IMG/VR virus record: IMGVR_UViG_3300036770_007945
Span: 64,001-128,000 of that record
Origin: a virus
Length of the DNA: 64,000 nucleotides
Reading direction: 5' to 3' (one strand)
The translations under genes and the position numbers were made by a program. The notes under the pieces were generated by a model that was given only the letters and a program-made list of their open reading frames with translations, did not search any database and was not told the DNA's origin. This document shows, one piece after another, positions 11,245 to 46,550 of the stretch (within the stretch, counting starts at the first letter, position 1; each line of letters starts with the position of its first letter).

Positions 11245-12336
11245 ATGCAAAAAATATATATCAAGGATAAATTATATATACCACAAACCCTTATTCCAGA
11301 TCTCAGCCTTTTACAAAAACATTGGGATTTACCTGTTTTTGATGAAAGTCTCTGTAAAAGGTGTGATAATCGTCCACATAGAATTAACAATCAATGTCGT
11401 ATTTGTCCAGGATTACAGCGCATTGTGCGGATGTGGGCGGTCAAGGAAGGAAATAATGGCTTGAAATACTATACATTACCTTGCGGGCAGATTAAACACA
11501 CACTTGCTCGATTGAATATAGATATTAGTAACGTTCAATTTGAAGATCTGCGAGTTGATTTACCTTTTATACATCCTCTAAAATTCACAGGGACTCTCCG
11601 CAGAGGCGAGTTTGTTAATGGAGTGCCTACTGCTAACCAAGAATATCTTGTTCAAAAATGGCTTGAAACTGGTTACGGTTTAATTGAAGCTCCTCCTAGA
11701 ACAGGTAAAACAGTCTTAGGCACTTATTTATCCTGCTTTCTTCAAAAGAAGACAATCATTACTGCACACCAAGAAGAGCTCTTAATGAACTTCTATAAAA
11801 CTTATGTCAATATGACTAACCTTAAAGAGCTTCAAGAGCAGACTGGTAAACATATTGTAAAGGTAATTCAAAAAATAGAAGATTTTGAGCGAGAGGATTA
11901 TGATGTTATTTTAGTCAACTATCAAAAGTTTATTCGTAGTAGCGGGGAAGAGCGCATCGAAAAATACTTAAAATCTAAATTCGCTTTTGTTATTGTTGAC
12001 GAGTGTCATCAGGGGGCTGCGGAATGTTTTTCAAAATTTTTACACAAGTTAGCCCCCAAGTATACACTAGGTCTGAGTGCTACTCCTAAAAGAAAGGATT
12101 GTGTTGAAGAGAGGACACAAATCTATACGGAACAGGGGGTCATGTCTATGGGGGACTTGGTAGATTTACTTAAGCAGGGGCAAAAAATTCGTGTATATTC
12201 AAAAAATCTTGAAACTAATGAAATAGAGTTAAAACCTATTCTAGAAGTGCATGAAAAATATACTAACAGAGTTAAAAAAGCGCTTTTAAGTAATCGGGTT
12301 AGTCTTCTTACGACTACTGACCACTTTCTCTACTAA
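11245..12336 (+). CDS. UvsW/XPB-like helicase, N-terminal half fused to N-terminal split intein
   Basis: 363 residues. Residues 1-285 are the front of a superfamily 2 helicase: a four-Cys putative zinc site (C37, C40, C51, C54), Walker A APPRTGKT at 149-156, DECH box at 252-255 and SAT motif at 278-280. At residue 286 the helicase stops and an intein starts: C286 opens block A (CVEERTQIYTEQG), and the protein ends in block B (TTTDHFLY) followed by TAA. This 78-residue segment (12100-12333) is an N-terminal split intein. The matching half, preceding the rest of the helicase, is at 44632-45561. T4 UvsW is a recombination and origin-remodelling helicase; trans-splicing would give a 545-residue enzyme of similar size. 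The last 51 bp overlap the convergent gene ending at 12286. Confidence 0.93.
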   Translation: MQKIYIKDKLYIPQTLIPDLSLLQKHWDLPVFDESLCKRCDNRPHRINNQCRICPGLQRIVRMWAVKEGNNGLKYYTLPCGQIKHTLARLNIDISNVQFEDLRVDLPFIHPLKFTGTLRRGEFVNGVPTANQEYLVQKWLETGYGLIEAPPRTGKTVLGTYLSCFLQKKTIITAHQEELLMNFYKTYVNMTNLKELQEQTGKHIVKVIQKIEDFEREDYDVILVNYQKFIRSSGEERIEKYLKSKFAFVIVDECHQGAAECFSKFLHKLAPKYTLGLSATPKRKDCVEERTQIYTEQGVMSMGDLVDLLKQGQKIRVYSKNLETNEIELKPILEVHEKYTNRVKKALLSNRVSLLTTTDHFLY

Positions 12337-12510
12337 CTTCTTTATTGAGAAGCAAGAGGTTTCTGATGTAAGGCTTGCTTTGTTTATTTTTAAAAGGTTT
12401 TTAGGATTGTTTATCTCTTGTATTTCTTTTCTGGCAGCGTCAATGAGTTTGATCTGCTTGTTAACATAATTTAATACAATCTGTATTCCTTCCTGATTTA
12501 TCTTAGTCAT
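12286..12510 (-). CDS. hypothetical small protein, 74 aa
   Basis: I do not recognise this small protein. It is basic and helical, with a heptad-like pattern around residues 8-45 and a Ser/Lys-rich C-terminus. It is the last gene of the minus-strand head module. Its 3' end overlaps the intein-coding end of the convergent helicase gene by 51 bp, which could constrain both sequences. It is retained as real because of its position in the operon and its normal leader. Confidence 0.5.
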   Translation of the reverse strand: MTKINQEGIQIVLNYVNKQIKLIDAARKEIQEINNPKNLLKINKASLTSETSCFSIKKLVEKVVSSRKKTNPIT

Positions 12511-43894: not shown

Positions 43895-44560
43895 TTATTT
43901 GTTTTTAATTAAGTTTAGAAATTCAGCTCTCAAAGAAGATTCTGTTTTGAATCTCCCTCCTAACTTACTTGTAGTTGTTGTTGAATTCGTATCGTTTACT
44001 CCTCGCATAGCAACACAATAATGTTTGCCGTTCAAGACTACTGCTACGTCTTCTGTGCCCAGAATAAAAACTAAAGCGTGAAAAATTTGTTCTGCTAATC
44101 TTTCTTGCACTTGTGGACGTTTGCAAAAGAACTCTACAATTCTATTTATTTTTGACAATCCTAATACCTTGTCTTTAGGAATATAGCCGACATTAGCTAA
44201 ACCATCTATCACTACAAAGTGGTGTTCACAGTTAGAAATAGCAGTGATATTTTTCTCAACAACAACCTCATCGTAACGCATTTTATTTTCTATGACGGTG
44301 CATTTTGGAAAATTCTTATAATCTAACCCGGAGAATATCTCTCGAACAAACATCTTTGAAACCCTCTTTGGCGTATCCATTAGAGAATCGTCTTTTAAAT
44401 CTAAACCTAAAATCTCCATAATCTGTTTAAAGTTTTCAGTGATCTTTTCGATCTTTTCTTCTTCAGTATAATTACTTGCAACAGTCGGGGTTTCTACTCC
44501 ACAAGCTTTTAAATAATCTTGCACTTTTTTTCCTAAATCGAAATCGGTTTTATCTTTCAT
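43895..44560 (-). CDS. folE: GTP cyclohydrolase I
   Basis: 221 residues with the whole type I signature: zinc ligands in SNCEHHF, GLSKINRIVEFFCKRPQVQERL, and GKHYCVAMRGV carrying the second Cys ligand. It converts GTP to dihydroneopterin triphosphate, the first step toward 7-deazaguanines. Next would come QueD and QueE, which are not seen in this window. The gene starts the run folE-queF-dpdN-kinase-dpdA-queC, with 17 bp to queF. The N-terminal 45 residues are charged and not conserved. Activity is expected to be intact. Confidence 0.95.
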   Translation of the reverse strand: MKDKTDFDLGKKVQDYLKACGVETPTVASNYTEEEKIEKITENFKQIMEILGLDLKDDSLMDTPKRVSKMFVREIFSGLDYKNFPKCTVIENKMRYDEVVVEKNITAISNCEHHFVVIDGLANVGYIPKDKVLGLSKINRIVEFFCKRPQVQERLAEQIFHALVFILGTEDVAVVLNGKHYCVAMRGVNDTNSTTTTSKLGGRFKTESSLRAEFLNLIKNK

Positions 44561-44631: not shown

Positions 44632-45561
44632 TTAAAAAACTTCAGAAGCATTAAACTTTGTAAAGTAATCTATTGCACTCTCACTCTTAGCTTTTAACAA
44701 CTCATAAGCGATTTTTAAGCTCTCTTCGTTTAATTTATAACGCACAGTATAGTTGTTTGCCACGTTAGCTACTAAATTCGGTTTAATTTCTTTTAAAAAT
44801 AAAGATTTGAAACAAGCATGTGATAAATTTGTATTGTCAACGAAAATCTTCACTACTGGTTGCTTCTTATTCAAGTGTGGGGTGCAAGGTCTATTAGATA
44901 GTTGCAAGAACATCGGACTTCCTGCCTCTACTGTTGCAGTTTCCGGTATTATTGAATATAACATTGTTGGTATTTTAAGATCTATGCCTTGTTTAATCAT
45001 CGACCTCATAGAAACTAATACTTTGCAAGAACCTTCGTCTACTCGCTTCAACACCTCACTCTTCTCTTTAGAAAGCATTGCCCCATAAAAGCCTGAAGCG
45101 ATTGCATTTTCTGGAGTAGTTAAATTTCTTTTAACCGCCTCTTTATTTATTAAATCTAATAAAGTTCGAAGATGTTCTACTCTGTCTGTAGGTATAATTA
45201 TGCAAGGATGTTCTTTTAAATCTATAAATAAATGCTCAAGGAGTAAATTATTTTTTGCTTCAGATTTCAACATATTTGATATACTGTGCGCCCACAATTT
45301 AGACTCTTTCCAAGATACTCCTGTATTTACCACTTGTATTTCAGGCACCAGAGAAGTTGTTCGACTAACAACAACAACCGGCCCTAAGATCTCCTGGATT
45401 ACAAATTCAAGGCAGTTGTGAGATAATATATCTACGTTTCCAGCCTTAATAAAATAATTGTGGTTATCCTGAACGGTTATGTCTAAAACTCTTACAGGTA
45501 TATTCACTACTGTTTCATTAAGCAGCACTTCATGTATTTTTGTTTCGTTTACAGGTTTCAT
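44632..45561 (-). CDS. C-terminal split intein fused to C-terminal half of UvsW/XPB-like helicase
   Basis: 309 residues. Residues 1-49 are a C-terminal split intein: block F VRVLDITVQDNHNYF and block G DILSHN, followed at residue 50 by the +1 Cys (HN/C junction). From there the helicase resumes with CLEFVIQEILGPVV, which continues the SATPKRKD end of the 11245-12336 protein exactly as in unbroken helicases (SATPxRxD...GP). Later motifs are PCIIIPTDRVEHL (IV), SMRSMIKQGIDLKIP (V) and a weak motif VI QLSNRP. The gene alone has no Walker A and cannot be a working helicase. It is the first gene leftward from the gene-free hub and precedes folE by 71 bp. Confidence 0.92.
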   Translation of the reverse strand: MKPVNETKIHEVLLNETVVNIPVRVLDITVQDNHNYFIKAGNVDILSHNCLEFVIQEILGPVVVVSRTTSLVPEIQVVNTGVSWKESKLWAHSISNMLKSEAKNNLLLEHLFIDLKEHPCIIIPTDRVEHLRTLLDLINKEAVKRNLTTPENAIASGFYGAMLSKEKSEVLKRVDEGSCKVLVSMRSMIKQGIDLKIPTMLYSIIPETATVEAGSPMFLQLSNRPCTPHLNKKQPVVKIFVDNTNLSHACFKSLFLKEIKPNLVANVANNYTVRYKLNEESLKIAYELLKAKSESAIDYFTKFNASEVF

Positions 45562-45714
45562 ACTAGATTAAAGTTATTACGGTTTTTAATTTTAATGTAT
45601 ATAAAAAAGAAAACTACAGTTTTTTGAATAAAAATATTTATATTTACCTGTTGCACTTTAAATTTATATACCTATATTTTAGCTTATAAAGGACGGAACC
45701 TACGTTCCTAGTAA

Positions 45715-45850
45715 ATTTTTTAGACATTTTATTTCAATTTTTTAGACATTTTATTTCAATTTTTTAGACATTTTATTTCAATTTTTTAGACATTTTATTT
45801 CAATTTTTTAGACATTTTATTTCAATTTTTTAGACATTTTATTTCAATTT
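45715..45850. repeat. six 22-bp tandem repeats (iteron-like)
   Basis: Six identical copies of TTTTTTAGACATTTTATTTC plus AA, spaced exactly 22 bp apart (AGACATT at 45722, 45744, 45766, 45788, 45810 and 45832). Two helical turns per unit would place bound proteins on one face of the DNA. Related single sequences occur near 48040 (GGACATTTTATTTTATT) and in the inverted repeat at 63044-63113. There are no spacers, so it is not a CRISPR array. Confidence 0.93.
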
Positions 45851-45856
45851 TTTTAA

Positions 45857-46160
45857 ATATTCAGGCCCTAATAGAAGGAATGCTACCTCAATAAACAAGA
45901 GCATGTCCCCGTCAAGTGGTGCGGTAAGCACGAAAAACTTCGGACATCCTTCGCACGCCAAAAGTGTATTTATTATATACCTATATCTTTCAACATAGAG
46001 GTGTATAATAGAGAAACTTCATAAGAGGATAGAATGTGATACAACCCTTATTGTCGTCTGTTTGGCTTTAAGGATTAAGTGGGTGAGATTCCCGACCGTT
46101 GCATATTACAGTAGTGAAAAGGGAGACCGAGTAACCAGCCCGCATCTACATATTTAAGAA
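45857..46160 (+). ncRNA. candidate structured non-coding RNA or cis-regulatory RNA
   Basis: This segment is clearly richer in G and C than its surroundings and has no convincing reading frame. Visible pairings include ATGTCC/GGACAT (45903-45908 with 45942-45947) enclosing GTGC-loop-GCAC and AAGT/ACTT. Further on, GGGTGAGATTCCCGACCG (46081-46098) differs at only one position from a core string of FMN riboswitches (GGGUGAAAUUCCCGACCG). The rest of the riboswitch fold could not be traced, and similar GGGUGA..UUCCC hairpins also occur in group II intron domain I. A strong terminator follows at 46470. Strand is inferred from the terminator and from the GGGTGA string. Confidence 0.5.
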
Positions 46161-46274
46161 ATTAAAAAGTTTTAAATAACTTCGTGATTCAGAAAGAAAC
46201 ACGCAGAGAGAGATGTCTACTAAACAGATTTCCTCCTTTACGACACTATAACTTGCTATACCAAGAAACTTTGA

Positions 46275-46351
46275 GTAGCTTGAATAGAAGAGTAAGACTA
46301 AATAGTCCTTTTGATGGGATTATTTCAGCCTTACTCCTCTATTCAAGCTAC
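46275..46351. repeat. long near-perfect hairpin (about 33 bp stem)
   Basis: GTAGCTTGAATAGAAGAGTA at 46275 and its complement ending at 46351 pair over 22 bp with one mismatch. The stem continues inward over 11 more pairs with one bulged C, leaving an 8-nt loop. The hairpin is flanked by direct repeats of CCAAGAAAC (46261 and 46352). It could be a processed RNA stem, a replication structure or the remnant of a small mobile element. Confidence 0.85.
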
Positions 46352-46469
46352 CCAAGAAACCTACAACAATCTCATTTCTTTTAAAAAATTTTGAAAAATT
46401 TAAAAAAACTAAAATTTAAAATAAAAGGAATTAAAAAAAAAAAGAAATTTTCTAATTGTCAATATCTAC

Positions 46470-46500
46470 TTAGATAAGAAAGCTCTTATCTAATTTTTTA
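46470..46500 (+). terminator. intrinsic terminator ending the hub transcript
   Basis: TTAGATAAGA / TCTTATCTAA form a perfect 10-bp stem with a 4-nt loop, followed directly by six T on the plus strand. It lies 50 bp before the ATG at 46551. It would stop a plus-strand RNA made from the hub, or act as an attenuator for the 46551 gene. Confidence 0.8.
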
Positions 46501-46550
46501 GTAAAAGTTTAATTTTATAAAAGTAACTTCTTATTAACTATCTTATTATT

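What the first reader, a model, noticed from the sequence alone, without database searches (positions are those of the whole stretch)
11245..12336. Helicase gene broken in two and joined by a split intein, N half
The UvsW/XPB-like helicase stops right after its SAT motif (SATPKRKD) and runs into a 78-residue intein N-fragment starting with Cys286 and ending at block B (TTTDHFLY). The rest of the helicase is found behind an intein C-fragment at 44632-45561, about 33 kb away on the opposite strand. Neither half alone holds all helicase motifs. Fractured genes with split inteins are known, mostly from metagenomic phage DNA, but a UvsW-type case inserted at the SAT motif with halves on opposite strands looks unusual. 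The split lies immediately after block B, slightly earlier than in common split inteins, and the C-fragment is correspondingly long (49 residues).
Basis: partly seen in the sequence, partly recalled or inferred. Interest (0 to 1): 0.93.

Follow-up and report, generated by a model that had tools for sequence, protein, structure and literature searches.

The report
Phage helicase split by scattered intein halves
A virus of bacteria encodes one DNA-repair-type helicase as two separate genes 32 kb apart on opposite DNA strands, each ending in half of a self-splicing element (split intein) that should weld the two proteins into one; related phages carry the same break with the halves still side by side, so this looks like a further rearranged, slimmed-down case of a known trick.

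Summary
The window (part of a 140.4 kb phage record) encodes the N part of an XPB/UvsW-type SF2 helicase plus an intein N-fragment at 11245-12336(+), and an intein C-fragment plus the rest of the helicase at 44632-45561(-). These are the only helicase-family and only intein matches among 5,405 six-frame ORFs, and the two exteins join without gap or overlap against intact relatives. It is a new variant of a known kind: the "fractured gene" with a split intein. Dickeya phages JA11/JA33 carry the same break at the same residue (TPKRKD|C), halves adjacent, with an antisense endonuclease gene between; their sister JA13 (98-99% identical) has the gene intact. Yersinia fHe-Yen9-02 and Vibrio GR11A have the same design at the DEAH motif. 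New here: the halves are dispersed on opposite strands, the endonuclease is gone, and the intein core is unusually short (27 residues between block B and block F, against 41-52 in complete comparators). Trans-splicing is the best explanation but untested; the short core is the main reason for doubt. The helicase is closer to XPB than to T4 UvsW.

The parts
11245..12099 (+). N-extein: residues 1-285 of an XPB/UvsW-type SF2 helicase, with motifs I (APPRTGKT), II (DECH) and III (SATPKRKD)
   Evidence: Pfam ResIII 8e-17; PHROG 16 DNA helicase 1.9e-20; AF2 pLDDT mostly above 90, Foldseek to XPB 6e-11; about 30-35% identity over residues 1-285 to intact homologues
12100..12336 (+). Intein N-fragment, 78 aa plus stop: Cys1 to block B (TTTDHFLY); block N4 absent
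   Evidence: TIGR01445; profile without this sequence, E 1.3e-7; alignments
45415..45561 (-). Intein C-fragment, 49 aa: blocks F (VLDITVQDNHNYFI) and G (ILSHN)
   Evidence: TIGR01443 over its cut-off; profile without this sequence, E 8.7e-6
44632..45414 (-). C-extein: Cys+1 and the second RecA domain of the helicase, with motifs V and VI
   Evidence: Helicase profile E 8e-37; AF2 pLDDT above 90 for most of residues 71-190 with the intein part at low confidence; Foldseek to SF2 second domains
12286..12510 (-). 74-aa antisense ORF overlapping the last 51 bp of the N-half; sits where relatives have the antisense endonuclease, but without detectable similarity to it
43895..44560 (-). GTP cyclohydrolase I directly downstream of the C-half; helicase followed closely by this gene is the order in NCTB and IMG/VR 3300020471_000004, which suggests the C-half kept the ancestral place
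45562..46550 (.). About 1 kb without a recognisable gene upstream of the C-half, with a perfect 22-bp tandem array (45714-45853, 6.4 copies) and a 32-nt hairpin (46271-46355); no remnant of endonuclease or block N4

Best explanation
The two ORFs make two precursors, N-helicase-IntN and IntC-C-helicase, which associate through the intein halves. The intein reconstitutes, and by the standard class 1 pathway (Cys1 thioester, transfer to Cys+1, Asn cyclisation after the HN pair) releases itself and joins ...SATPKRKD to CLEF... to give one 545-residue XPB/UvsW-type helicase. The arrangement descends from an adjacent fractured gene like that of Dickeya phages JA11/JA33 (split intein plus antisense homing endonuclease inserted at the same codon). 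In this lineage the endonuclease was lost and one half, probably the N-half, was moved and inverted. Shown: the two halves, the intein blocks, the exact complementarity, and the same-site relative with its empty-site sister. Inferred: association, splicing, and the order of events.
For: Only two helicase matches and only two intein matches in the record, exactly complementary. Catalytic residues are present despite only 23-27% identity to the related inteins: Cys1, the TxxH of block B, His-Asn and Cys+1. Gapless junction against intact homologues. Residue +1 is Cys only in the two alleles with an intein at this site (this one and JA33); in 52 parsed non-redundant intact homologues it is G 35, K 7, Q 3, L 2, N 2, S, E, M and never C, and JA13 has Ala. 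JA33 against JA13: 98-99% identical flanks with about 1.5 kb replacing 10 bp at this site. GC content and GC3 of the intein parts match the exteins. A 78-codon stretch staying open by chance has p of about 0.003 at this composition. AF2: the exteins fold confidently while the isolated intein halves are low-confidence, as expected of fragments that order on pairing, although the alignments held no intein relatives.
Against: The intein core is shorter than every comparator: 27 residues between the block B His and block F, against 41-52 (37 in one whose C-fragment start I chose), with block N4 not recognisable in either half or nearby. No splicing data; no close relative to measure selection; no co-fold of the two halves could be run here.
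Confidence: 0.7

Rival explanations
1. Decayed intein: the rearrangement cut off the tail of IntN (the 74-aa antisense gene now overlaps its end), the intein no longer splices, and the two helicase parts either work as a non-covalent two-chain enzyme or are on the way out.
For: About 14 residues missing from the core including block N4; the N-fragment ends three residues after the block B His, inside an overlap with an antisense ORF.
Against: All catalytic residues and junction residues kept at only 23-27% overall identity; both exteins are intact and keep the helicase motifs; Cys+1 kept although intact homologues show no Cys there.
Confidence: 0.22
2. Assembly artefact: the real phage has the two halves adjacent (as in JA33), or an intact gene, and the contig is misjoined.
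For: Metagenomic contig, reads not available; every other split case seen in this clade has adjacent halves on one strand.
Against: Comparison of the two loci found no strong shared repeat that would explain a misjoin, only short AT-rich matches; the N-half has its own start and stop; the replication-gene neighbourhood is scattered throughout this record relative to relatives, not only at this gene; a simple misjoin does not explain the missing endonuclease and block N4.
Confidence: 0.06
3. Chance: two unrelated truncated helicase genes with intein-like ends by coincidence.
For: Individual intein-model scores are modest.
Against: Exact complementarity, unique hits, and the same insertion codon as JA11/JA33.
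Confidence: 0.01

Closest known systems
Dickeya phages vB_DsoM_JA11 / JA33 (Salmondvirus) fractured helicase, JA33_156 + JA33_155
   Same: Same helicase family, same insertion codon (TPKRKD|C), class 1 split intein with Cys1 and Cys+1
   Different: Halves adjacent on one strand with an antisense endonuclease gene between; IntN 95 aa with block N4. Sister phage JA13 has the gene intact.
Yersinia phage fHe-Yen9-02 and Vibrio phage vB_VcorM_GR11A fractured helicases
   Same: Same helicase family, split intein, antisense endonuclease between adjacent halves
   Different: Break at the DEAH motif (VDE|C), not at SAT; GR11A also has a cis intein in motif I of the same gene.
Fractured genes with split inteins of Dassa et al. 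2009 (gp41, NrdJ, IMPDH; from memory and via citations in PMC6892783) and split PolB of jumbo phage MIJ3 (PMC6892783)
   Same: Phage replication gene broken by a split intein, endonuclease associated
   Different: In MIJ3, and from memory in the Dassa cases, the halves are next to each other; the target genes differ.
Dispersed split inteins: cyanobacterial DnaE and Nanoarchaeum Pol (from memory)
   Same: Halves far apart; in Synechocystis on opposite strands; no endonuclease
   Different: Cellular genomes, DNA polymerases; N-fragments of the usual length of about 100 aa.

Membership tests
Split intein (class 1) | Cys/Ser at intein position 1 | tested here: met
   Cys286 of the N ORF
Split intein (class 1) | Block B TxxH | tested here: met
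   TTDH
Split intein (class 1) | Terminal Asn preceded by His, with C/S/T at +1 | tested here: met
   ILSHN|C
Split intein (class 1) | Complete Hint core including block N4 between B and F (usual, not strictly defining) | tested here: inconclusive
   27 residues between the block B His and block F against 41-52 in complete comparators; no N4 confidently found in or near either half, though the start of IntC could replace it
Split intein (class 1) | Trans-splicing activity | not testable with these tools
   needs co-expression
Fractured gene (Dassa et al. 2009) | One conserved gene encoded as two ORFs that each carry an intein half | tested here: met
Fractured gene (Dassa et al. 2009) | Homing endonuclease gene in the break (common, not universal) | tested here: not met
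   none near either half and none in the record; present in JA33, fHe-Yen9-02 and GR11A
XPB/UvsW SF2 helicase | SF2 motifs and profile or fold match to the family | tested here: met
   PDB profile search: XPBII 4e-30, UvsW 2e-13; Foldseek of the N-half: XPB 6e-11, UvsW 4e-8
XPB/UvsW SF2 helicase | Helicase activity | not testable with these tools
   needs biochemistry

The most novel reading that the evidence does not exclude
A working phage split intein with a break at a position not among the two described for natural ones (between block B and block N4, rather than at the endonuclease site or after about 15-25 residues), with a core trimmed by about 14 residues and the two extein genes dispersed on opposite strands.
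Probability: 0.35. Interest if true: 0.68.

Novelty: new variant of a known kind. Interest (0 to 1): 0.56.

Why it matters
Dispersed split-intein halves are, as far as I know, described from cyanobacterial DnaE and Nanoarchaeum Pol; a phage case with an adjacent, endonuclease-bearing relative at the same codon and a near-identical empty-site sister offers ordered stages (empty, fractured with endonuclease, dispersed without it) of how such genes arise. If the shortened intein splices, it would be among the smallest cores (127 aa), with a new natural split point, useful for protein-ligation tools.

Tried and rejected
Missing block N4 or endonuclease remnants in other frames around both halves: none; the +1 frame after the N stop contains EVSDVRL but lies antisense to the 74-aa ORF and does not score. 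Free-standing endonuclease of the JA33 type in the record: none; L013 9183-9995 looked zinc-ribbon-like but matched nothing in PHROGs or above cut-off in Pfam. Single inversion of 12.3-45.6 kb as the whole story: it fits the geometry (it would put C directly behind N), but neighbours of the helicase in relatives are scattered over the record, so one event is not shown. Scans of IMG/VR with the C-half alone and with TerL found no relatives; an alignment of C-exteins was too diverse to scan with. A Rfam scan of the window was empty. A full-text search for "split intein" with "UvsW" found nothing; Dassa et al. 2009 is not held.

Full report
What is there. The window is bases 64001-128000 of a 140.4 kb IMG/VR virus record. 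TerL places the phage far from, but within reach of, the PaBG / NCTB / Salmondvirus group of jumbo phages (33-34% identity); major head protein, portal and prohead protease genes are present. ORF 11245-12336 (+) encodes 285 residues of helicase followed by 78 residues of intein; ORF 44632-45561 (-) encodes 49 residues of intein followed by 260 residues of helicase. NCBIfam's intein models hit both, the C model over its cut-off and the N model just under. Profiles built here without the window's own sequences find exactly these two ORFs and no others among 5,405 six-frame ORFs of the whole record, both for the helicase family and for the intein, and the helicase parts cover complementary stretches of the model. 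ResIII occurs once and the intein C-terminus once in the record.

What the protein is. A profile of 31 family members matches XPBII and Rad25/XPB structures first (E 4e-30 to 5e-25) and T4 UvsW later (2e-13); the predicted N-half matches XPB and then UvsW. I therefore call it an XPB/UvsW-type SF2 helicase. In 67 IMG/VR loci the gene is nearly always one ORF of about 500-570 codons; the interruptions seen are the JA11 record at the SAT motif and inteins at motif I in three loci (two of them on one contig).

The same break elsewhere. In Dickeya phage JA33 the gene is split at the same codon: TATPKRKD|C, IntN 95 aa, an antisense 375-aa endonuclease (PHROG endonuclease families, three treble-clef zinc-finger repeats), IntC 44 aa, rest of the helicase. 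Relatives of that endonuclease are annotated as group I intron-associated VSR homing endonucleases and as MutH/Vsr-like. JA13, the same species at 98-99% nucleotide identity, has the gene uninterrupted, with about 10 bp where JA33 has about 1.5 kb and Ala where JA33 has Cys+1. Yersinia fHe-Yen9-02 and Vibrio GR11A have the same layout (split intein, antisense endonuclease) at the DEAH motif. Cys at +1 occurs only in the two alleles with an intein at this site; 52 parsed intact homologues have other residues. The fractured helicase is thus a recurring architecture in this group of phages, apparently not discussed in the literature I could search.

What differs here. First, dispersal: 32.3 kb and opposite strands, whereas the halves of other split cases seen in this clade lie about 60 bp to 1.1 kb apart on one strand. 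The C-half sits directly upstream of GTP cyclohydrolase I, and helicase followed closely by that gene is the order in NCTB and in IMG/VR 3300020471_000004, so the C-half probably marks the old place; other neighbours of the helicase are scattered over the record. Second, no endonuclease of the JA33 type is left near the halves or anywhere in the record. Third, the intein core is short. IntN ends three residues after the block B His. IntC is 49 aa, against 44-46 in relatives. A nearest-structure alignment of the concatenated halves runs ungapped from block B into the first residues of IntC, so the start of IntC might replace block N4, but a profile alignment places those residues with low confidence. 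Natural split inteins are described as broken at the endonuclease site, giving about 100 and 40 aa, or atypically with an N-fragment of 15-25 aa (PMC11923092); 78 aa ending at block B is neither.

How it most likely works. Both precursors would be made from separate transcription units, pair through the intein halves and be joined by class 1 protein splicing to a 545-aa helicase. Shown here: the anatomy, complementarity, catalytic residues and the same-site relative. Inferred: pairing, splicing, and the path from an adjacent fractured gene through loss of the endonuclease and relocation of one half. The serious rival is a decayed intein, because of the missing core segment; conservation of the catalytic and junction residues at low overall identity argues against old decay, not against recent decay. 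AlphaFold models of the single halves show well-folded exteins and low-confidence intein parts, which fits both readings.

Verdict. Observation confirmed; interpretation largely right, with the corrections above. New variant of a known kind. Interest moderate to good: it is not a new kind of system, but the dispersed phage case, the shortened split core and the occupied/empty pair JA33/JA13 make the origin of dispersed split genes testable.

Noticed in passing
window 45714-45853 and 46271-46355: Perfect 22-bp tandem array (6.4 copies) and a 32-nt hairpin in a gene-poor stretch of about 1 kb between oppositely transcribed gene blocks, directly upstream of the C-half; possibly an origin or regulatory region.
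   Followed up: partly
L016 1257-5436 (Vibrio phage GR11A): One helicase gene carries a cis intein in motif I and a split intein with antisense endonuclease at the DEAH motif, so two splicing events would be needed for one product; annotated only as hypothetical protein and helicase domain protein.
   Followed up: partly
L014 against L018 (Dickeya phages JA33 and JA13): Occupied/empty pair within one phage species for a split intein plus endonuclease insertion of about 1.5 kb; a ready system to test homing of a fractured gene.
   Followed up: yes
G007 (IMGVR_UViG_3300025288_000012, loci L097, L107, L110, L113, L115-L118): A 191 kb phage record with 13 intein C-terminal matches, including at least two split inteins with the halves 62 and 174 bp apart, one in a clamp-loader-like gene.
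   Followed up: partly
L020 (Klebsiella phage KP13-7, 956-6486): nrdA is broken into several ORFs with intein-like fragments between two annotated nrdA pieces.
   Followed up: no
window 25.6-31 kb and 44 kb, and record positions outside the window: The replication-gene neighbourhood of the helicase in relatives (polA, DnaB, GTP cyclohydrolase I, RecA-like and others) is scattered over the whole record here, which points to extensive rearrangement.
   Followed up: partly
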